Shown: positions 54,891 to 63,987 of the stretch, one piece after another
How the letters are laid out: each line of letters begins with the position of its first letter
Numbering within the stretch: the first letter of the stretch is position 1
Assembly: GCF_000424005.1 (NCBI RefSeq)
Contig: NZ_AUJB01000004.1
Coordinates: 1-64,000 of the forward strand
From: Pseudobutyrivibrio ruminis CF1b
GTDB taxonomy: Bacteria > Bacillota > Clostridia > Lachnospirales > Lachnospiraceae
DNA: 64,000 nt
Reading direction: 5' to 3'
Notes under the pieces: generated by a model
What the model was told of the DNA's origin: nothing
Database searches by the model: none
The model's input: only the letters and a program-made list of their open reading frames with translations
Position numbers and translations under genes: made by a program

Positions 54891-55018
54891 CTACGTAAAA
54901 GTTTCTCAAGCAATTCCACATACTCTTTAAACTGAGCCCTGCCAAATTCTGTAATAGTATAAGTTGTTTGAGGTTTATTATTTACGAATGCCTTATCAAT
55001 TTGCAAGAATTTTTTACA
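54881..55018 (-). pseudogene. C-terminal remnant of a winged-helix regulator
   Basis: The frame reads DKAFVNNKPQTTYTITEFGR, then a helix ending LLEKLL and TAG. This is the wing and last helix of the small MarR/ArsR-type winged-helix family (usual form KxFVxxKPxTxYxxTExGR). The DNA-reading half is missing; the upstream side runs into the terminator and repeat at 55.0 kb. Probably broken by the insertion of the neighbouring element. Confidence 0.65.
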
Positions 55019-55047
55019 TAAAAAAGGACATCCAACCGGATGCCTTT
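55018..55047 (-). terminator. Hairpin and T-run next to the tRNA-like segment
   Basis: AAAGGACATCC / GGATGCCTTT (one bulged A, loop AACC) followed on the minus strand by TTTTTT. It sits 18 bp past the tRNA 3'-like segment, where a tRNA-gene terminator would be. Confidence 0.75.
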
Positions 55048-55064
55048 AAAAATTTGTATTAAAA

Positions 55065-55285
55065 GAGCGCGAGACGGGACTCGAATCGCATTCCTTATCT
55101 TAAAATACTGATAGAAAGGGGATTCTAGCACCGCTATTTGCTTAGGGAACACCTGAGGGGTCACCTAAATCATTTTCATGTCATACAGAAGTTGGGACTT
55201 GAATTGTAACGTCACCATAAAAATACTGAAAGAAAGGGGACTCTAGCACCACACTATTACTGGGGACCCCTTAGGGAACCCCTGA
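55065..55285. repeat. Imperfect direct repeat with tRNA 3'-end-like segments (candidate attachment-site scar)
   Basis: Two units about 118-129 bp apart. The best parts are 30 bp at 55103-55132 and 55221-55250 (28 of 30 identical) and 16 bp at 55141-55156 and 55270-55285 (15 of 16). In the minus strand, unit one ends with TTCGAGTCCCGTCTCGCGCT (55067-55086), which looks like a tRNA T-loop and acceptor end; unit two has the decayed TTCAAGTCCCAAC. No complete tRNA can be folded. The repeat lies exactly where backbone genes give way to AT-rich cargo. The rest of this 575-bp gap holds the two remnants. Confidence 0.6.
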
Positions 55286-55321
55286 CAATAATTATTGAGA
55301 TTTGTAAAATCATCCACATAT

Positions 55322-56098
55322 TTAATTTGCAGACGCATATTTCGCCAAACCTCTTTTCCAAACCATCCCAACTATAATAGATAATACAACCAAAAAAATA
55401 ATAAACCAAACTAATTCCACTACGCTAATATTTCCTTTAAGTATTTCGACGGGTCCATTAATCGCTGTAAAAAAAGGAAGAACCCATGTTAAAAAAAATA
55501 TTATGCTATTGGGATATATAACCTTTGGTCGCGTAGACGCATCAATTAAAGATTCTGGAACTCCCATCAATTTATTAGTTTTTTCTTTCCAAAACGAAAA
55601 CATAACCATTAACTGATTTACCAAGAATACAAACATCATAGCAAATGGAATAAAAATTACATATTCAATTATATTTATGCGATAGTAATTTGACTTCGAA
55701 ATAATCACCATCTGAATAATAATTGCTATGACTAAATTAACCGCACTTGGAATATCTAACCTATATAATGCATAATACCAAAAGGACTTTACCGGACGAA
55801 CAAAAACATAATCCAAATTTCCTTCTATAATATCATCCGATAAATTTTCATGTGCAGAAACAAACAACACTTGATACATACTTAAAATTATATTTGATGT
55901 ACATATCAAAGAAAAATAATCATTTCGTGTCCAGCCAAGTATTGTATCCGAATACTCATAGTAGATAATTCCAGTTATCATTTCTATGGAAAAAAACATA
56001 ATTCCAAACAATGCTACAAAAATTGAGGTACTTCTATAGACCAAGCATTCTTGAATACTTTGCGAAATAAAAACTTTATATAATCTCTTATTCATCAA
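55322..56098 (-). CDS. ABC-2 family transporter permease (COG3694-like), peptide cluster
   Basis: A 258-aa protein with six membrane helices and the ENLSDDIIEGNLDYVFVRPVKSF loop typical of this ABC-2 permease group. Its gene overlaps the next permease gene by 4 bp, and with the ATPase it forms a three-gene exporter. It is last in the YcaO operon, so it should export the modified peptide or protect the producer. Confidence 0.88.
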   Translation of the reverse strand: MMNKRLYKVFISQSIQECLVYRSTSIFVALFGIMFFSIEMITGIIYYEYSDTILGWTRNDYFSLICTSNIILSMYQVLFVSAHENLSDDIIEGNLDYVFVRPVKSFWYYALYRLDIPSAVNLVIAIIIQMVIISKSNYYRINIIEYVIFIPFAMMFVFLVNQLMVMFSFWKEKTNKLMGVPESLIDASTRPKVIYPNSIIFFLTWVLPFFTAINGPVEILKGNISVVELVWFIIFLVVLSIIVGMVWKRGLAKYASAN

Positions 56099-56877
56099 TT
56101 GCCCATTCCTTCATATTTTTTTAGTCCTTTAGATAGCAAAATATTATAGATATAATATAAAAATACTATCCATATTAATGTGATTAAACAGTAATATAAA
56201 ATAAAAGTATTTTCCACCTGGCAAGTTAATACTTTTGTCAAAACATGTCCAACAATAGCAAATGGTGTAACTGATAAAACCATATAATATGGTTTTGGTA
56301 ACAAATCAAGTGGAAAATACAAACCTCCCATAAGTAGATAAATAGCAGTTAATATTGATCTTAACGGCCACATTTGTATAATCCAAAAACCTATTGTTGA
56401 GATTACTGAAACACACATGAAAAACATTAAAAAGGCTAATAGCAAAAAAATTAATGCAAAAAACACATACAAGATATCTGCTCCTTGAGCATTAATCATA
56501 AAAAATGCCAAAATCAAATATACTGTAACCTCTAAAATTTTACTTCCCATATATCTGGCAAAACTTTCATAAAGCAAATGTATTGGTCTTAACAATAAAG
56601 TTGTAAGTTTTCCAGAATGTATTAGAGTCCCCAACCTAAAACAAGGTTCAAAAGAAAAAATAACACTAGCTACATTTGCCAATATAATATACATAATCAT
56701 ATTGTTATACGAATACTCACCGATATAATTATATTCATTTGATATATATATCGCTTTCCAAATAAACACAGTTGTCAAAATTTGCATAACTTTTAACGCC
56801 AACTTGACACAAGTATCAAATTTATATATCAACTGTGAACTGATTTGACTATATAAAATTCTTAGATACTTATTCAT
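56095..56877 (-). CDS. ABC-2 family transporter permease (COG4587-like), peptide cluster
   Basis: A 260-aa, six-helix permease. LIHSGKLTTLLLRPIHLLYE is the cytoplasmic loop matching the RPV-type loop of its partner. It overlaps the ATPase gene and the second permease gene by 4 bp each (ATGA), so the three are translated together and probably act as a heterodimeric pump. Confidence 0.88.
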   Translation of the reverse strand: MNKYLRILYSQISSQLIYKFDTCVKLALKVMQILTTVFIWKAIYISNEYNYIGEYSYNNMIMYIILANVASVIFSFEPCFRLGTLIHSGKLTTLLLRPIHLLYESFARYMGSKILEVTVYLILAFFMINAQGADILYVFFALIFLLLAFLMFFMCVSVISTIGFWIIQMWPLRSILTAIYLLMGGLYFPLDLLPKPYYMVLSVTPFAIVGHVLTKVLTCQVENTFILYYCLITLIWIVFLYYIYNILLSKGLKKYEGMGN

Positions 56878-57839
56878 TGGTTCTCCTGTGTAAACATCTT
56901 AAATATAATTTCTTCAAGCTTTGGTACTTCCTCCCTGATTGAGACAATATTGGATATATTTACATTATTTAGAATGTTTTCGGAATCTTCATTCAAATAT
57001 AATTTATATTTACAACTTTCAATTCTCTCAATTCTATATGCTTTTGCATCAAATGGTATCTTATTTTCCTTAGTCTCTATAATATAGCAATTTTGGGTAC
57101 TATATTCTTTTCTAATTTCATCAATCGTCGATTCTTTAACTATTTTACCTTTGATGATGACTGCTATGCGATTAGCCATTTTTTCTATATCATTCATATA
57201 GTGACTTGTTAGGATAATAGTTGTTTTTTCCTTACTATTCAATTCATGCAAGAAATCATATATAGCATATTGACTCACAATGTCTACCCCAATAGTCGGT
57301 TCATCTAAAAACAATACTTTAGGAGAATGAATCACTGAGCAAACTAACTCAAATTTTATTCTTTCACCCAATGATAGTTTTCTGACTGGTATGAAAAGTT
57401 TATCTGCTATCTGAAGTTTTTCTGTCAAGTACTTTAACCGAACCGAAAAAGAAGCATTCGAAACATTATAAATAGCTTGAAGCATTTTAAGAGTTTCAAA
57501 CGCTGGTAAATCCCAAATCAGCTGTGTCTTTTGTCCTAAAACAACTCCAATTTGTGATAAATAATTTGGAGTTTTAGAAAATGGATTGCACCCTAAACTG
57601 TCAATTGTTCCCTGCTGAGGTTTGATTATTCCAGTAAGCAACTTAATTAAAGTTGTTTTTCCGGCCCCATTGGGGCCTAGTATTCCAATAATATCACCTT
57701 CGACAATACTTAAATTTATATCGTCTAGTGCAGTTACTTCTTTTTTTTCCCTTTTACCAAAATCCAAAATTGAACCTTTTAGACCCGCTTTTTTTTCAAA
57801 CGTCTCATATTTATAACTTACATTTTTACATTCAATCAT
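56874..57839 (-). CDS. ABC transporter ATP-binding protein, peptide cluster
   Basis: A 321-aa ATPase (COG4586-like): Walker A GPNGAGKTT, signature LSLGERI, Walker B VLFLDEPT, switch His in LTSHYMND. A C-terminal extension of about 90 aa follows the nucleotide domain. It overlaps the UPF0489 gene upstream by 4 bp, which ties transport to peptide modification. Confidence 0.94.
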   Translation of the reverse strand: MIECKNVSYKYETFEKKAGLKGSILDFGKREKKEVTALDDINLSIVEGDIIGILGPNGAGKTTLIKLLTGIIKPQQGTIDSLGCNPFSKTPNYLSQIGVVLGQKTQLIWDLPAFETLKMLQAIYNVSNASFSVRLKYLTEKLQIADKLFIPVRKLSLGERIKFELVCSVIHSPKVLFLDEPTIGVDIVSQYAIYDFLHELNSKEKTTIILTSHYMNDIEKMANRIAVIIKGKIVKESTIDEIRKEYSTQNCYIIETKENKIPFDAKAYRIERIESCKYKLYLNEDSENILNNVNISNIVSIREEVPKLEEIIFKMFTQENQ

Positions 57840-58639
57840 ATATTTATCCTATTTTCTACAAAATATTTAATTACTTCTTGTCTCGTATAACCACTACTTT
57901 CTGATTTGCAAATGATATTTAAATCAGGATTCAAGTTGTGCCTAACAAAAAAATCACGCAAAGTTGCTAAGTTAGCTTTTATTTCATTTTCTGATATTTT
58001 ACATGCTGGAATTGGTTCAAGCCCAAATAATTTAACATAATACCTAGAATCCTTTGAGTAGACATTTAAGTTGCTTCCAAACGAACATCTAACTTTATTA
58101 TAAATATTATTTTGTAACTCAAAGAATTGATTTCGTGTTATTTCTAATTCAATAAGTTCTCCTAAATGGTCATTACTTCCAAAATAATCTAAATCCACAC
58201 TCACAATTACAGATTTATTCGAAAAATCATATATATGTGTTAAATTTGTATCCGCTCTACATGTAATTAATTTATGGATATTTCCCGCTACCTTCGTTTT
58301 AATTGGTAATAATGAAATAAAATCATTTGCCTTTTGTTCAGTATTTATACATATTTCAGAAAATCTCTCACTGTTATGATTAGATATCCAAATTACATCC
58401 TCAATAATATCCGTGTACAATAGGGGAGGAATATAATTTCCATAGTTCAATTGAGAATACGAGATTAAATCAATAGATTCATCAGTTAGATTATTTATTG
58501 CAGATTCACTTACAATAGCTTCATTCATATCACTATGATCATCTATATGAATCAAGGTAAATTTTTGTTTCTTCACTCTATGCAACTTAACAATTTCTTT
58601 AAAAGCTTCTTGATGCTCCTCTATATATACTGTCTGCAT
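57836..58639 (-). CDS. UPF0489 family protein, peptide-arginase-like
   Basis: A 267-aa protein. VYIEEHQEAF at the start, HIDDHSDM with the DxHxD metal motif (D33, H35, D37), SVDLDYFG with D149 and D151, and SSGYTR near the end match the arginase/deacetylase-type metal site of UPF0489. Members studied in other RiPP pathways (OspR) turn peptide Arg into ornithine. Its place between the YcaO and exporter genes suggests it modifies the same small peptide. Whether it cuts Arg or has another amidine or amide substrate is open. Confidence 0.75.
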   Translation of the reverse strand: MQTVYIEEHQEAFKEIVKLHRVKKQKFTLIHIDDHSDMNEAIVSESAINNLTDESIDLISYSQLNYGNYIPPLLYTDIIEDVIWISNHNSERFSEICINTEQKANDFISLLPIKTKVAGNIHKLITCRADTNLTHIYDFSNKSVIVSVDLDYFGSNDHLGELIELEITRNQFFELQNNIYNKVRCSFGSNLNVYSKDSRYYVKLFGLEPIPACKISENEIKANLATLRDFFVRHNLNPDLNIICKSESSGYTRQEVIKYFVENRINI

Positions 58640-58668
58640 TTAAAGTCCTCATCTTTATAATTATATTT

Positions 58669-59805
58669 TTAATCATTAGGGACAACTGGAATACCACTTC
58701 CAACTAAATAAAATTTATCATTGCCATGTAGTATTACTTGTACACAAATTATTTGATTATAACTAAATAAAATCTTATAGCTAATATTCATTTTATTCTG
58801 CTCAATTATCTTAATCTCTTCTTGATATATTTGCTCCGCAGCGATTTCTTTTGAAGTAACATAGTCAGCAAATTGAATATCAGCACCATACTTTAGACAA
58901 AGAATCGCATTATATTTCTTCAACTCCTTAAACAACGATAGTGCGGTTACATCCTCAATTTTATTCTGTGCACACTGTAGGTGATAACTTTGAAGGCATT
59001 CCAGCAATGCTCGTTCAAGAGCATATCTTGAAGACGTTGATAGTCCGCTCCCTTTAAAAGGTACTCCTGTTCCAGGATTGTCTGCAAAAACTTGATAACA
59101 AAAAAAACCATCAAATGTTTTAATATCAACAATAATAATCTCTGTGCCAATCTCAGCGGATATTGTATTATATAATTCTAATAAACTGGCAGATAATGAT
59201 TTGGGATTAATAAATACAGCTTTTTCACTATGGTCGATAAATACATTATAGTAATGTTTAGAAAGTGAATATCTTTCCAATAACTCGTTTAACGCATGAA
59301 TAAGAGCATCATTTAATGATGTTCCGATTGCACACCCAGAATTCGTGCTATATTTTTTTATAGATACACATTTATCAGGAATACTATTGTTATAAACATT
59401 CCATAATGCAGTTGGGAAAAAAATCTTATTGTTTCCATCAAAAAATTTTGTAGCACCAATTATATCATCAGGCGATAGATTTTCTTTCAAGACCTTTACA
59501 GCATATTCGTTTTGTATTATTCCATCACAAATTGATGAAATAGGTACACTCATCTCAGAGTTTGAACTATTTTGATAAATATAATGTTCTATTGCCTCAT
59601 AAATAGCACTTGCTAATGACTGATTTGAATACCCTTTTCCATTTCCCTGTACAGTGCCATTTAAAATCACACTATAAGTCGACACATTACTATCAACAAT
59701 AGTTTTTTTTTCACTTATTTCATAGTTTAAATTTAAGAAATCAAGGCATTGTTTTGCTAGTTCTATTGCCTCTTCAGTTTCCATTTCACGTTCATATACT
59801 GACAC
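58669..59805 (-). CDS. YcaO-family ATP-dependent peptide-modifying enzyme
   Basis: A 378-aa YcaO protein. SASAIYEAIEHY-type motif with S66, E70 and E73 (SxxxExxE), NELLER with E174 and E177, and the third helix ALERALLECLQ (E264, E269) make up the ATP/Mg site. The C-terminus ends GSGIPVVPND. YcaO enzymes activate peptide amides to form azolines, thioamides or amidines. No E1-like/ocin-ThiF partner, TfuA or dehydrogenase is nearby, so it is a stand-alone type. GTG start behind GAGG, 15 bp past the intra-operon terminator. Confidence 0.88.
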   Translation of the reverse strand: MSVYEREMETEEAIELAKQCLDFLNLNYEISEKKTIVDSNVSTYSVILNGTVQGNGKGYSNQSLASAIYEAIEHYIYQNSSNSEMSVPISSICDGIIQNEYAVKVLKENLSPDDIIGATKFFDGNNKIFFPTALWNVYNNSIPDKCVSIKKYSTNSGCAIGTSLNDALIHALNELLERYSLSKHYYNVFIDHSEKAVFINPKSLSASLLELYNTISAEIGTEIIIVDIKTFDGFFCYQVFADNPGTGVPFKGSGLSTSSRYALERALLECLQSYHLQCAQNKIEDVTALSLFKELKKYNAILCLKYGADIQFADYVTSKEIAAEQIYQEEIKIIEQNKMNISYKILFSYNQIICVQVILHGNDKFYLVGSGIPVVPND

Positions 59806-59819
59806 AATATAATCCTCAT

Positions 59820-59849
59820 AAAAAAGAGGTCAAATTAATGACCTCTTTT
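59820..59849 (-). terminator. Intra-operon terminator between peptide gene and YcaO gene
   Basis: A perfect 11-bp stem (AAAAGAGGTCA / TGACCTCTTTT) followed by TTTTTT on the minus strand, 11 bp past the small-peptide stop and just before the YcaO ribosome site. Leaky terminators here are common in RiPP operons and give excess precursor. Confidence 0.9.
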
Positions 59850-59860
59850 CTTTCTACAAA

Positions 59861-60025
59861 CTACTCAGCAGCATTTAAAGCTTCGATTAACATTTTTTCC
59901 TGCTGCGATACATTGATTTCACTAAAAGACTTATTGACAATGTCAGCAAGGCTGATGTCCATTAACTGATTGTCTTCTAAGATTTCAGACATCACAACAT
60001 TGATTTCACTTCTTCTGTTTCCCAT
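59861..60025 (-). CDS. Candidate RiPP precursor peptide, 54 aa
   Basis: A 54-aa peptide, no Cys. N-terminus MGNRRSEINVV, then an acidic helical stretch (12-50) and the tail ALNAAE. The pentapeptide SEINV occurs twice (6-10 and 35-39). The only Arg residues are R4 and R5. ATG 60025 is chosen because AGGAGGGGG precedes it; an ATG at 60055 would translate that ribosome site. The first gene of the YcaO operon, with a good promoter before and a terminator after it. No known precursor family recognised; the precursor role is inferred. Confidence 0.7.
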   Translation of the reverse strand: MGNRRSEINVVMSEILEDNQLMDISLADIVNKSFSEINVSQQEKMLIEALNAAE

Positions 60026-60082
60026 CGAAAAGCCCCCTCCTTTTTGTCTGAACATTCAGTCTAATCATATATGTTGTAAAAT

Positions 60083-60111
60083 AATATATAGATATTTTTT
60101 GTTAATTTCAA
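60083..60111 (-). promoter_or_regulatory. Promoter of the YcaO/peptide operon
   Basis: On the minus strand TTGAAA (60106-60111), 17 bp, TATATT (60083-60088); start point near 60076, leader about 50 nt. The rest of the 204-bp gap is AT-rich and shows no other gene. Confidence 0.7.
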
Positions 60112-60229
60112 TGGAAATAATCAATAGAATTTCTGTGAAAAATGTCCGAATTTTTGCGTTTAATGCACATTATTCTATTTTTGTGTATTTATTATATTTA
60201 GATTATATAAAATTGAGCATAAAATACTT

Positions 60230-60931
60230 TCATGTGACCGAATAATCATTCATGGCTACTCTCAAATGCTGTAAACTGCTCTGCTCGATACCTTTAACAG
60301 TTTCTTTAGATTTATTAAAATGCCTAGCTGTAGCTTCAAGCGTCCTTCCTTCTCTCAGGCTAAAGCCATAGTGATAGGTGAGGACTTTTCTCGCATCTGA
60401 AGGTAAATCCTGCAATCTGATTAGCATTTTAAGGAGCATAGTTCTGTGAACAGCCAACTCACCTGTAGGATCACGGTGACTGTCAACACTTGCTTCAGCA
60501 GTTAGCTGTCCGATGTACTCATCTCTGTACCCATTAGCAGGATCATCGTCCAGAAAGATATTTGTAAGACCATCATCAACTGAATGCTTCTCAAATGTTC
60601 CAAACGTTCTTCGCCCTACATCACGCATCTTATTTCTTATAACTTCAGTAGCGTATGTTGAAAATTTAGCGCCTGCTTCTGGCGAGAATGAAAGTGCTGC
60701 ATCTATCAGAGCTAGATATCCTTCCTGTATTAAATCTTCAATATCCCAGCCTCCATAGGGATTAGAATTTAGGGAGTATTCCTTTTCTACTAGGATAGCA
60801 TTTGCTATAACAAGACCTTTGTTAGCAAGAATGAGGAGCTGTTTGGCATTGTCATCACCAGATTGAATTTTGGTACAAAGCTCTTGATTAAATCGACTTA
60901 GACGTTCATTGTGTGTAAGGCTTCTTTTCAT
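60230..60931 (-). CDS. Sigma-70 family RNA polymerase sigma factor
   Basis: A 233-aa sigma factor: region 2 (DIEDLIQEGYLALIDAALSF, FSTYATEVIRNKMRDVGR) and region 4 (LPSDARKVLTYHYG, LEATARHFNKSKETVKGIEQ). It lacks region 1.1 and is of the size seen on Gram-positive mobile elements. Its ATG overlaps the stop of the XRE gene (TAATG). It may drive element or cargo promoters, though the peptide operon promoter looks vegetative. Confidence 0.9.
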   Translation of the reverse strand: MKRSLTHNERLSRFNQELCTKIQSGDDNAKQLLILANKGLVIANAILVEKEYSLNSNPYGGWDIEDLIQEGYLALIDAALSFSPEAGAKFSTYATEVIRNKMRDVGRRTFGTFEKHSVDDGLTNIFLDDDPANGYRDEYIGQLTAEASVDSHRDPTGELAVHRTMLLKMLIRLQDLPSDARKVLTYHYGFSLREGRTLEATARHFNKSKETVKGIEQSSLQHLRVAMNDYSVT

Positions 60932-61791
60932 TATTTCTTATCAAAAAGAGCCACCACCTTATAGAACCATCTTATTGGTGTTCTTAATGCCTTTACCATT
61001 TTTTCATTTGCTCCCTGCTCCAATAATGACTTTTCAGTAGCAGTCATCATTATGTCAATCTTTTCATCAGTAGATAGATTTTTCTTAGATTTCCCCTTAT
61101 ATTCTTCTACGAATGTATTGAATACTTTTCTATTTAAGTCAGAAGTACGATTTAGGCCATTGGCTTTTATTTCTTCCTCAGATTTCTTTTTGATTTCTCG
61201 AACAGCAGCTTCTATTCTATGGATAATCTGGTCAAATTCATATCTTGAAGCAGTAAACTTTTGAGATTTTATTTCTTTAATGTCATTTTGAAATTCTTCA
61301 ACATCAGTTATTTCATTGATGTCAACTTCATCTTCCAAAAACTCAGCGGTGCAGCTTAACAAATCATTTCTAATCTTGTACGTTTCATCCATCTGTCCTG
61401 AAAAGTAAATTGCCATAGACTTTGTTGCTTGACGAAAGTTTTTATTAAGTAATAGCTCATTTACAACATCAGGATTTACATTATCAGTCAGCAAATGCTT
61501 GACTGCTTCAGCAGATAAACCAAGCTCACCTATATCATGATAGAAAGGCTCTGGATTATCAGTTAATCCTAAAATAAAGTCAGTAGAGACATTATAAAGG
61601 TCAGCTAAAGCTTTTAAGCTTTTTCCAGTGATTGAATCTACACCACCTGATTCCATTCTTCCATAGGTGGCATTGCTTACTCCGATAGCCTTAGCAACAT
61701 CACCTTTATCTAAACCTTTTTTTCTTCTTAATTGCTCAAGTCTTTTTGGTCTATCTTCAGGCAAAAAGACATCTAATTCCATAACATCCAT
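60931..61791 (-). CDS. XRE-family transcriptional regulator with long helical C-terminus
   Basis: A 286-aa protein: Cro/CI-type HTH in the first 80 residues (LEQLRRKKGLDKGDVAKAIG, SNATYGRMESG, LADLYNVSTDFILG), then a long Lys/Glu-rich helical region. GGGAG precedes the ATG. Coupled to the sigma factor gene; the pair lies back to back with the mob genes across the oriT, so it may control the element's transfer or maintenance. Confidence 0.88.
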   Translation of the reverse strand: MDVMELDVFLPEDRPKRLEQLRRKKGLDKGDVAKAIGVSNATYGRMESGGVDSITGKSLKALADLYNVSTDFILGLTDNPEPFYHDIGELGLSAEAVKHLLTDNVNPDVVNELLLNKNFRQATKSMAIYFSGQMDETYKIRNDLLSCTAEFLEDEVDINEITDVEEFQNDIKEIKSQKFTASRYEFDQIIHRIEAAVREIKKKSEEEIKANGLNRTSDLNRKVFNTFVEEYKGKSKKNLSTDEKIDIMMTATEKSLLEQGANEKMVKALRTPIRWFYKVVALFDKK

Positions 61792-61980
61792 TAATAATCT
61801 CCCTTATAAAAACGCTCCAAACGAATGTTTCATCCTATTGTAACATTTTCATATTTGAAAGAAAATCCCAATTCAGTTTCCATAATTCTCCAATATTTTC
61901 ATCTTTGTTTGATTTGAGACCTGCCTCAGTTTTTATCCGTATTATCTATTAGAAGCCCCAAAGTGGAGACTTGCTAAAGC

Positions 61981-62047
61981 CCCTTATTTTAATAAGGGCG
62001 CACTTCTATACCTCTTCAAGAGGTATGTGCGTTTTGCCTTCGCAAAA
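61981..62047 (-). other. oriT: MOBQ/IncQ-type origin of transfer (oriT)
   Basis: Minus strand AAGTGCGCCCTTATT (62005-61991) contains the IncQ/pSK41-type nick core AAGTGCG/CCCT; the nick would fall between 61999 and 61998. The relaxase-binding inverted repeat ATACCTCTT-C-AAGAGGTAT (62008-62026) lies next to it as in known oriTs. Further hairpins: CCCTTATT/AATAAGGG (61981-61998) and TTTTGC/GCAAAA (62032-62047). It sits in the 354-bp gap before the mob genes. Confidence 0.88.
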
Positions 62048-62145
62048 GTCTTCCCGACTTCGTCGATTTTGCGTTCGCTATCGCTCCGGGATTGCAGGCA
62101 ATCGTGCAAGACACTATTAACAAAAATCTGAAAGGAACCAATATT

Positions 62146-62499
62146 ATGGAAAACAAAGAAACAATTGTAGAGGGCTATACTATTAGCTCCAAACTAACAA
62201 AAGCACTATCAGATTATGAAAAAGCTGAGGCTATTCATCAAAAAACGCTAAAGCGTTGTGAACAGCTTGAGCACAAAGTCACTTTACTAGAAAACAGAAT
62301 TGAATATCAGAAGAAGCAGGAAAGAAAACGAAGAACACACAGACTATGCACAAGAGCAGGTCACATTGAATCACTTCTTCCTGAAACAAAAGAGCTAACA
62401 GATAACCAGTTCATGGCATTCTGTGATGCTCTTTTTTCTTATCCGAAGATGAAGGAACTTGTCAGCAAACTACTAGCCAAAGTAAAGGAGGAAAACTAA
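62146..62499 (+). CDS. DUF3847-like mobilisation accessory protein
   Basis: A 117-aa protein: an N-terminal coiled coil (LTKALSDYEKAEAIHQ and following), a basic patch (KKQERKRRTHRLCTRAGHIE), and a short C-terminal helix. DUF3847 proteins sit directly before MobA/MobL relaxases and are thought to help at oriT. AAAGGAA precedes ATG 62146; the frame is open further upstream but without a ribosome site. Its stop abuts the relaxase ATG. Confidence 0.8.
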   Translation: MENKETIVEGYTISSKLTKALSDYEKAEAIHQKTLKRCEQLEHKVTLLENRIEYQKKQERKRRTHRLCTRAGHIESLLPETKELTDNQFMAFCDALFSYPKMKELVSKLLAKVKEEN

Positions 62500-63987
62500 A
62501 TGGCACTTTATCATTTTCATGTATCTCAAGTTAGTCGAGGAAAAGGACAAAGTTGTTTGGCAAGCGATGCATATATTACAGGAACAAGACTCATTGATGA
62601 CTACTATGGCGATGTCCATGATTACACCAAAAAGCAAGGCGTGCTCTTTACAGAACTTCTACTTCCTGATTATGCGCCAGAAAGATTGCATGACCGTGAA
62701 GTATTATTTAATGAACTTGAAGTAATTGAAAAACATCCTAAAGCGCAACTGTGTTACTCCTTTGATTTTTCTCTCCAAAATGAATTGAGTTATGAAGAAA
62801 ACTTAGAAATTGCCCAAAAATTCATTAAGGAAAATTTCTTATCAAAAGGAATGATTGTAGATTATGCAATTCATAATCCAGATAAACATGGCGGCATCCC
62901 AAATCCACATGTTCACATGCTCATTCCCATACGCCCTCTTAATGAAGATGGAACCTGGGGAGAAAAACAAAAGCGAGAATATCTTATTGATGAGAATGGC
63001 GAAAGAATTAAAAAGCCAAATGGCAAATATGATTTTAAATCTGTACCGACAACTGACTGGGGAAATCCTGAAACGCTTGATGCCTGGAGGAAAGCTTATG
63101 CAGATATCTTTAATAAGGCATTTGAAGAAAAGGGACTTGATTGCAAAATAGACCATCGTTCTTATTCAGCGCAAGGACTTGAGCTACTTCCAACTATTCA
63201 TGAAGGACCTCAGGTAAGAGCAATGGAAGCAAAGGGGATTAAAACTGAAATCGGTGATGAGAACCGTAGGATAAAGGCTTTTAATGAAATGATTAAAAAG
63301 CTATCTACAAACCTTATTGATATCTTTGAATGGCTCTCAAATTTCATAAAAGAATGTCATAAGCAAAAAATATACGTTCCATCACTAGGTGAGCTTGTTT
63401 CTGATTATTATGACAAGCGCTATATCAATGCATGGAGTAACAAAGCAAAGGTAAAAAATTTAAAAGAAAGAGCTGCTGTGATATTTTTCTTATCCCAAAA
63501 CAACATTAGCACTTTTGAAGAACTTAAGGATTTTGTTCATGCATCATATGGAAAAGTTAATGAACTTCAGGAGGATATTTCAGAGATTGATAAAAAGATT
63601 TCTAAAATCAATGATGCATTTCGCTATCGTCAAATGTTGGCTGAAACAAAACCTATCTATGACAAGCAGTTTTCTTTTCGTTTAAAGAGGAACCAAGAGA
63701 AGTATGTGGCTGAACATAGAGATGCACTTGATAAATATCATTTAGCCAAACGAATGCTTGATAATTATTGGTACGGCAGAAAGCCAAACTGGGAAGTTGC
63801 AAAAATTAATTTAAGCAATCTTGAGAAATCTAAATCCCAAAAGCAACAACTTTATAAAGACTATAAGGTAACAGCTAGTGAAGCCTATAAGATAAGAAAG
63901 ATTGCAGAGGAAATGATTAAAAAGCCTGCGACTAACATTCCGGTTCATCAAGTAACTAAAAAACGCAAATACGAATTAGGTCGATAG
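62500..63987 (+). CDS. MobA/MobL-family relaxase
   Basis: A 495-aa relaxase: ALYHFHVSQVSRG at the start, ASDAYITGTRL with candidate nicking Y25, and the HUH metal motif PHVHMLIPIRPL (H137, H139) with upstream H130. It should nick the adjacent oriT and lead the strand through a conjugation channel. The C-terminal 200 residues are Lys-rich and helical. No long primase or helicase extension is present. GGAGG precedes the ATG. Confidence 0.94.
   Translation: MALYHFHVSQVSRGKGQSCLASDAYITGTRLIDDYYGDVHDYTKKQGVLFTELLLPDYAPERLHDREVLFNELEVIEKHPKAQLCYSFDFSLQNELSYEENLEIAQKFIKENFLSKGMIVDYAIHNPDKHGGIPNPHVHMLIPIRPLNEDGTWGEKQKREYLIDENGERIKKPNGKYDFKSVPTTDWGNPETLDAWRKAYADIFNKAFEEKGLDCKIDHRSYSAQGLELLPTIHEGPQVRAMEAKGIKTEIGDENRRIKAFNEMIKKLSTNLIDIFEWLSNFIKECHKQKIYVPSLGELVSDYYDKRYINAWSNKAKVKNLKERAAVIFFLSQNNISTFEELKDFVHASYGKVNELQEDISEIDKKISKINDAFRYRQMLAETKPIYDKQFSFRLKRNQEKYVAEHRDALDKYHLAKRMLDNYWYGRKPNWEVAKINLSNLEKSKSQKQQLYKDYKVTASEAYKIRKIAEEMIKKPATNIPVHQVTKKRKYELGR

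What the first reader, a model, noticed from the sequence alone, without database searches (positions are those of the whole stretch)
55322..60111. YcaO + UPF0489 + three-gene ABC exporter operon: uncharacterised peptide pathway
Seen: promoter, small peptide gene, terminator, YcaO, UPF0489, ATPase and two permeases on one strand, with 4-bp overlaps from UPF0489 onward. Known: YcaO activates peptide amides; UPF0489 proteins can be peptide arginases; both act in RiPP pathways. I do not recall a described class pairing the two without other tailoring enzymes, protease or leader-binding domain. An amidine or azoline formed by YcaO together with ornithine would be a new combination.
Basis: partly seen in the sequence, partly recalled or inferred. 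Interest (0 to 1): 0.9.

Follow-up and report, generated by a model that had tools for sequence, protein, structure and literature searches.

The report
YcaO–arginase peptide operon, N-terminal core
A small gene cassette on a mobile element in a gut bacterium of the Butyrivibrio group appears to make a modified peptide whose first nine residues are almost identical to those of peptides on Vibrio plasmids, except that where Vibrio has lysine this one has arginine plus an enzyme predicted to turn arginine into the lysine-like amino acid ornithine.

Summary
The operon is real: precursor peptide (54 aa), hairpin, YcaO, UPF0489, ABC ATPase and two permeases on one strand. The UPF0489 protein is a genuine peptide-arginase homologue: full-length match to OspR (E 1.6e-28) with all six metal ligands. 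The YcaO is stand-alone, with no E1/ThiF-like, TfuA or dehydrogenase partner in the operon. In the loci examined the pair occurs only in this cassette, which is cargo of a mobilizable element and nearly identical in two other genomes. New here: distant YcaOs (21-23% identical) on three Vibrio plasmids sit beside peptides beginning MGNKRSEIN or MGKKRSEIN; ours begins MGNRRSEIN, while the tails are unrelated to ours. The Vibrio loci lack an arginase and have Lys where ours has Arg. I conclude an N-terminal-core RiPP in which arginase supplies ornithine (a Lys-like amine) and YcaO most likely forms an amidine; the chemistry is inferred.

The parts
59861..60025 (-). precursor peptide, 54 aa, begins MGNRRSEINV; its only two Arg are residues 4 and 5; no Cys, no Thr; proposed core = N-terminal part, rest = follower
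   Evidence: strong ribosome-binding site; first 9 residues 8/9 and 7/9 identical to Vibrio peptides next to related YcaOs
59820..59851 (-). terminator-like hairpin (13-bp stem, U-run) between precursor and YcaO, likely partial terminator that keeps precursor in excess
   Evidence: -17.5 kcal/mol, z -4.56; role inferred
58669..59805 (-). stand-alone YcaO protein, 378 aa (GTG start; an in-frame ATG lies 7 codons on)
   Evidence: PF02624 2.7e-22; TIGR00702 64.3 bits, below its cut-off of 75.65; motif residues kept
57836..58639 (-). UPF0489 peptide-arginase homologue, 267 aa
   Evidence: PF12640 4.1e-10; NF052474 7.7e-33, 114 bits against cut-off 350; OspR 8BRP 1.6e-28 over residues 6-263; ligands H9 D33 H35 D37 D149 D151
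56874..57839 (-). ABC exporter ATPase, 321 aa (DrrA-like)
   Evidence: PF00005 2.2e-24; TIGR01188 2.8e-62, below cut-off
56095..56877 (-). ABC-2 type permease 1, 260 aa
   Evidence: PF06182 4.5e-13
55322..56098 (-). ABC-2 type permease 2, 258 aa
   Evidence: PF06182 3.8e-30
60083..60111 (-). promoter-like site upstream of the precursor
   Evidence: 10/12 match, but such sites are not in excess of chance in this region
60230..61791 (-). Cro/C1 HTH gene and sigma-70-like gene: backbone of the mobile element, probably not part of the peptide operon
   Evidence: relatives in the genus have other genes in the same slot

Best explanation
The operon makes a ribosomal peptide whose core is the N-terminus of the precursor (after Met removal: Gly-Asn-Arg-Arg-Ser-Glu-Ile-Asn) and whose tail serves as follower. 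The UPF0489 enzyme hydrolyses Arg4 and/or Arg5 of the precursor to ornithine, restoring a primary side-chain amine like the Lys found at residue 4 in the related Vibrio peptides. The stand-alone YcaO then uses ATP to activate a backbone amide of the same segment, most likely giving an amidine with the N-terminal or a side-chain amine (azoline at Ser6 less likely). The ABC-2 exporter removes the product, and host proteases trim the follower. Shown by sequence: gene content, intact arginase and YcaO motifs, the conserved N-terminus, the Arg/Lys difference. Inferred: substrate, order, chemistry, export, trimming.
For: Arginase motifs and full-length OspR match. Only two Arg in the precursor, adjacent, at positions 4 and 5. 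Vibrio YcaO loci: peptides MGNKRSEIN (two plasmids) and MGKKRSEIN (one) directly upstream of YcaO; 0 of 500 base shuffles of each of the three upstream regions held a start as similar to ours. First nine residues 8/9 and 7/9 identical to ours, tails no better than shuffles (249/300 and 265/300 shuffles at least as good). No arginase in the Vibrio stretches by profile search, nor anywhere in the plasmid collection by tblastn with our UPF0489, E up to 10. No TfuA, ThiF-like or dehydrogenase match in the operon; no Cys or Thr in the precursor. Precedent for a YcaO-dependent amidine from a precursor with leader, core and follower: streptamidine (PMC8442711, parts 1-2 of 5 and passages seen).
Against: Only one independent cluster has the arginase (three host genomes, near-identical DNA), so the Lys/Arg swap is a single event. 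The Vibrio peptides keep Arg5 without an arginase. A conserved N-terminus could equally be a recognition sequence. SEINV recurs at residues 35-39 of our precursor without Arg nearby (38 of 20000 shuffles repeat any 5-mer), which also suits a recognition motif. Small MG-start ORFs near the YcaOs of G936 (two), Streptomyces and Pantoea, found with a filter that demanded MG, share 4, 4, 2 and 4 of 9 residues with ours; for the two of G936 115 and 125 of 500 shuffles do as well. Yet the G936 YcaO is closer to ours (28%) than those of Vibrio are. No protease is encoded. Single-sequence structure models failed (pLDDT 39.8 and 38.0).
Confidence: 0.55

Rival explanations
1. The conserved MGNxRSEIN segment is a short leader that docks the YcaO, and the variable C-terminal part is the core. 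The arginase edits the leader or acts elsewhere.
For: Conserved front and variable rear is the usual leader/core pattern; SEINV occurs twice in our precursor; the two Vibrio tails are related to each other (13 of 31 identical, 0/300 shuffles).
Against: The precursor's only Arg residues are in that segment, so an arginase acting on this peptide must act there; the tail has no Cys or Thr.
Confidence: 0.2
2. YcaO makes an oxazoline at Ser6 (or another Ser), or a thioamide, beside ornithine: an azoline/thioamide peptide rather than an amidine.
For: Ser6 directly follows Arg-Arg; archaeal YcaO MJ1094 is the best-scoring solved relative, recalled as linked to thioamidation.
Against: No E1/ThiF-like or TfuA partner in the operon; no Cys/Thr in the precursor.
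Confidence: 0.15
3. The UPF0489 enzyme and YcaO do not act on this small peptide; the YcaO modifies a cellular protein and the UPF0489 a small molecule.
For: UPF0489 relatives in other Clostridia match mostly the first third of the peptide-arginase profile and have no YcaO nearby.
Against: Our UPF0489 matches OspR over its whole length; the operon is a compact mobile cassette with a precursor that shares its N-terminus with YcaO-linked Vibrio peptides.
Confidence: 0.1

Closest known systems
Peptide arginases OspR, FlmR, OhkR (PF12640)
   Same: Metal motifs EEH(N/H)EAF, DXHXD, LDIDLDYF (ours EEHQEAF, DDHSD, VDLDYF), next to an Arg-bearing precursor (PMC12703449, PMC10028609)
   Different: Paired with a YcaO; the three strong relatives found here have, by eye, radical SAM and GNAT-like neighbours instead and no YcaO by profile. 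114 bits, far below the FlmR/OhkR model cut-off of 350
'MGXRRSSE' precursor type (named in PMC12703449, citing Mordhorst et al. 2020)
   Same: Linked to peptide arginases; starts M-G-X-R-R-S like ours
   Different: Ours continues E-I, not S-E. The original paper is not held; its gene neighbourhoods were not seen
Streptamidine family (PMC8442711)
   Same: Stand-alone YcaO with a small precursor and ABC transporters; amidine product
   Different: Our precursor lacks the ALV motif; by Pfam content our operon lacks a hydrolase, flavin dehydrogenase and Fec-like transporter; no arginase is named in the parts of the paper read
Bottromycin (recalled; start of the abstract of PMC5103208 seen in a listing)
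   Same: N-terminal core made from a precursor's N-terminus; macrocyclic amidine
   Different: Recalled: no arginase; dedicated hydrolases and methyltransferases; unrelated precursor
Vibrio YcaO-ABC plasmid clusters (NZ_CP064859.1, NZ_AP025501.1, NZ_OY808999.1; precursors recognised here)
   Same: Nearly the same N-terminal nonapeptide in the precursor, stand-alone YcaO, exporter
   Different: Lys in place of Arg4, no arginase, follower unrelated to ours, a different (fused) ABC exporter type

Membership tests
Peptide arginase (PF12640) | Three metal-binding motifs with six ligands | tested here: met
   H9, D33, H35, D37, D149, D151 align with OspR His12, Asp39, His41, Asp43, Asp165, Asp167
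Peptide arginase (PF12640) | Full-length similarity to a characterised member | tested here: met
   8BRP, E 1.6e-28, residues 6-263
Peptide arginase (PF12640) | Converts peptide Arg to Orn | not testable with these tools
   needs enzyme assay
FlmR/OhkR subfamily (NF052474) | Score over curated cut-off of 350 bits | tested here: not met
   114.2 bits
YcaO superfamily (PF02624) | Pfam score over cut-off and conserved ATP/Mg residues | tested here: met
   80 bits vs 25.7; invariant E70, E73, N173, E174, E177, E269, Q272 among 5 YcaOs; which residues bind ATP/Mg is recalled
Partnered azoline/LAP or TfuA-thioamide YcaO systems | E1/ThiF-like, dehydrogenase or TfuA partner in the operon | tested here: not met
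   no such Pfam or NCBIfam match in the operon genes at E up to 0.1 (for the ATPase 25 of 190 NCBIfam families were shown)
Streptamidine-type cluster | ALV motif in the precursor | tested here: not met
   no ALV in the precursor
Streptamidine-type cluster | amiB/C/E/F gene set | tested here: not met
   judged from Pfam content of the operon only; no search with the ami genes was made
Amidine-forming YcaO RiPP | Amidine in the product | not testable with these tools
   needs MS/NMR of product
'MGXRRSSE' precursor type | N-terminal motif MGXRRSSE beside a peptide arginase | tested here: inconclusive
   MGNRRSEI: first six positions fit, last two do not

The most novel reading that the evidence does not exclude
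A RiPP family in which the YcaO closes an amidine onto the side-chain amine of residue 4, supplied either directly by Lys (Vibrio) or by an in-operon peptide arginase making Orn from Arg (this cassette): the arginase would manufacture the nucleophile for the YcaO, and two bacterial phyla would make nearly the same product by swapping one codon for one gene.
Probability: 0.2. Interest if true: 0.85.

Novelty: new variant of a known kind. Interest (0 to 1): 0.6.

Why it matters
It puts two separately known peptide-tailoring enzymes on what looks like one substrate and gives a natural experiment (Lys without arginase in Vibrio, Arg with arginase here) that makes the role of ornithine testable by changing one residue. 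It may also give the uncharacterised 'MGXRRSSE'-like precursors a second enzyme and a likely core, and it offers a minimal two-enzyme route to a possibly new backbone modification.

Tried and rejected
Relatives in other genomes. YcaO profile: 3 of 226 class genomes, own and two weak partial hits in 574- and 577-aa frames that I did not follow. Arginase model: 10 of 391 class genomes, only own full-length; 6 of 398 phylum genomes, own, three strong and two weak, the two weak not followed. The groups overlap and are samples of their taxa. Collection scans with UPF0489, YcaO, their profile or the precursor (viral contigs; phages 47, 65; plasmids 9, 10, 46, 52, 61; Vibrio cluster DNA against E. 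coli 79) gave only the plasmid YcaOs and chance-level hits. The genome-contig scan gave only the two near-identical copies. Five viral-contig matches to the N-terminal DNA pattern read as a 24-aa frame overlapping a 608-aa ORF on the same strand, with no YcaO relative in the contig pieces held: taken as chance. MG-start ORFs near the YcaOs of G936, Streptomyces and Pantoea are not counted. The sigma and HTH genes were considered as operon regulators and set aside. Structure models were too poor to use, so no fold search was made.

Papers: PMC12703449 (parts 1-2 of 5, and passages), PMC8442711 (parts 1-2 of 5, and passages), PMC10028609, PMC10676384 and PMC13289728 (passages); all others listings only. 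Literature searches. One search found 28 papers with three of the four words ornithine, amidine, RiPP and YcaO, of which 15 were listed; some hold both ornithine and YcaO and were not opened.
Full report
Observation. The operon described is present on the minus strand. A 54-aa peptide gene with a strong ribosome-binding site is followed by a stable hairpin, a stand-alone YcaO gene, a UPF0489 gene 29 nt on, and an ATPase and two permeases joined by 4-bp overlaps. The promoter match is not above chance. In a scan of 54901-62100 for ORFs of 20-110 aa with a ribosome-binding-site-like sequence, four passed and only this one lies at the head of the operon.

Enzymes. The UPF0489 protein matches the solved peptide arginase OspR over residues 6-263 (E 1.6e-28). 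The residues that align with the six metal ligands of OspR named in PMC10028609 are all kept (H9, D33, H35, D37, D149, D151), as is the neighbouring Glu (E8). It is below the cut-off of the FlmR/OhkR model (114 against 350 bits), so it is a separate subgroup. The YcaO is over the Pfam cut-off, keeps the residues that are invariant among five relatives, and as a profile matches MJ1094, TruD, MusD and LynD among solved structures. No partner gene for azoline or TfuA-type thioamide formation is present in the operon. Each enzyme is the only match to its Pfam family in the window's own genome.

Mobility and distribution. The same cassette is 99.3% identical over 9.0 kb (up to the window's edge) in Pseudobutyrivibrio sp. 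OR37 and 99.8% over 6.9 kb in Butyrivibrio fibrisolvens 16/4; in the latter the similarity stops before the relaxase gene. The 16/4 copy has broken frames in YcaO and exporter genes. The HTH, sigma, DUF3847 and MobA/MobL genes upstream look like the backbone of a family of mobilizable elements in the genus. Six loci with relatives of both HTH and sigma (L088-L093) have other genes after sigma; of these I named by Pfam only an AgrB gene in L090 and a radical SAM gene with an MFS transporter in L092. A contig of G787 with 100% identical HTH and sigma proteins ends 97 nt after the sigma gene, so its cargo is unseen.

The pairing. Of 12 loci around UPF0489-type hits in other genomes (9, 3, one of them only 3.3 kb long), 0 had a YcaO by profile. 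Of 10 loci with other YcaOs (L004, L005, L006, L049, L050, L051, L052; L028, L044, L047), 0 had an arginase by profile. Some of these stretches are short or end at a contig end close to the YcaO (L049, L047), so genes further off were not seen. For the plasmids, tblastn of the whole collection with our UPF0489 found nothing at E up to 10.

The comparison that matters. YcaO relatives on plasmids include Vibrio europaeus, V. lentus and Vibrio sp. 16. Directly upstream of the YcaO lies a 39-41-aa ORF beginning MGNKRSEIN (first two) or MGKKRSEIN (third); the Vibrio sp. 16 one is annotated as a hypothetical protein. Ours begins MGNRRSEIN. These YcaOs are 21-23% identical to ours in a global alignment. 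Shuffling each of the three upstream regions 500 times never gave as good a match. Beyond residue 9 the Vibrio and window peptides are no more alike than shuffles. Two lineages thus keep nearly the same N-terminus with different tails and different exporters (ABC-2 here; in V. europaeus a fused ABC membrane-ATPase protein). The Vibrio clusters have no arginase and have Lys at residue 4, where ours has Arg. The window precursor's only Arg residues are 4 and 5. The simplest reading is that arginase converts Arg4 (perhaps also Arg5) to Orn, the shorter homologue of Lys.

Limits. The arginase-bearing cluster is a single event in three hosts, so the swap has n = 1 on that side and two distinct Vibrio N-termini on the other, and Vibrio keeps Arg5 unaided. 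G936 has a YcaO closer to ours (28%), but the small MG-start ORFs near its YcaOs resemble our N-terminus no better than shuffles (115 and 125 of 500); those near the Streptomyces and Pantoea YcaOs share 2 and 4 of 9 residues and were picked by a filter for MG. None of these is counted. The pentapeptide SEINV recurs at residues 35-39 of our precursor, unlikely by chance (38 of 20000 shuffles repeat any 5-mer), which fits either a recognition box or a second site; I cannot explain it. The product, order of steps and bioactivity are unknown. Model building from single sequences failed.

Known or new. PMC12703449 lists 'MGXRRSSE' among uncharacterised precursor types associated with peptide arginases. 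Our precursor fits its first six positions. The source paper was not available, so I cannot say whether YcaO is part of those clusters. In the open library three searches for the pair of enzymes showed no paper on it, with the two unopened listings as a caveat. I therefore file the cassette as a new variant of a known kind: a YcaO RiPP pathway with a peptide arginase and, probably, an N-terminal core.

Noticed in passing
window 60230-63987 and L088-L093: HTH-sigma-DUF3847-MobA/MobL element family with exchangeable cargo right after the sigma gene, including an AgrB gene (L090) and a radical SAM plus MFS pair (L092).
   Followed up: partly
window 55102-55285: Two imperfect 31-nt direct repeats, 118 nt apart, close to the cassette end at about 55053-55065 where similarity to OR37 and 16/4 stops; possible attachment end.
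   Followed up: no
window 59861-60025: SEINV occurs twice in the precursor (residues 6-10 and 35-39) and SEI three times.
   Followed up: partly
   Followed up: no
L051:31646-32680: The Vibrio sp. 16 plasmid carries a second, shorter YcaO (344 aa) that lacks the C-terminal part of the family and an Arg present in the other seven YcaOs aligned.
   Followed up: no
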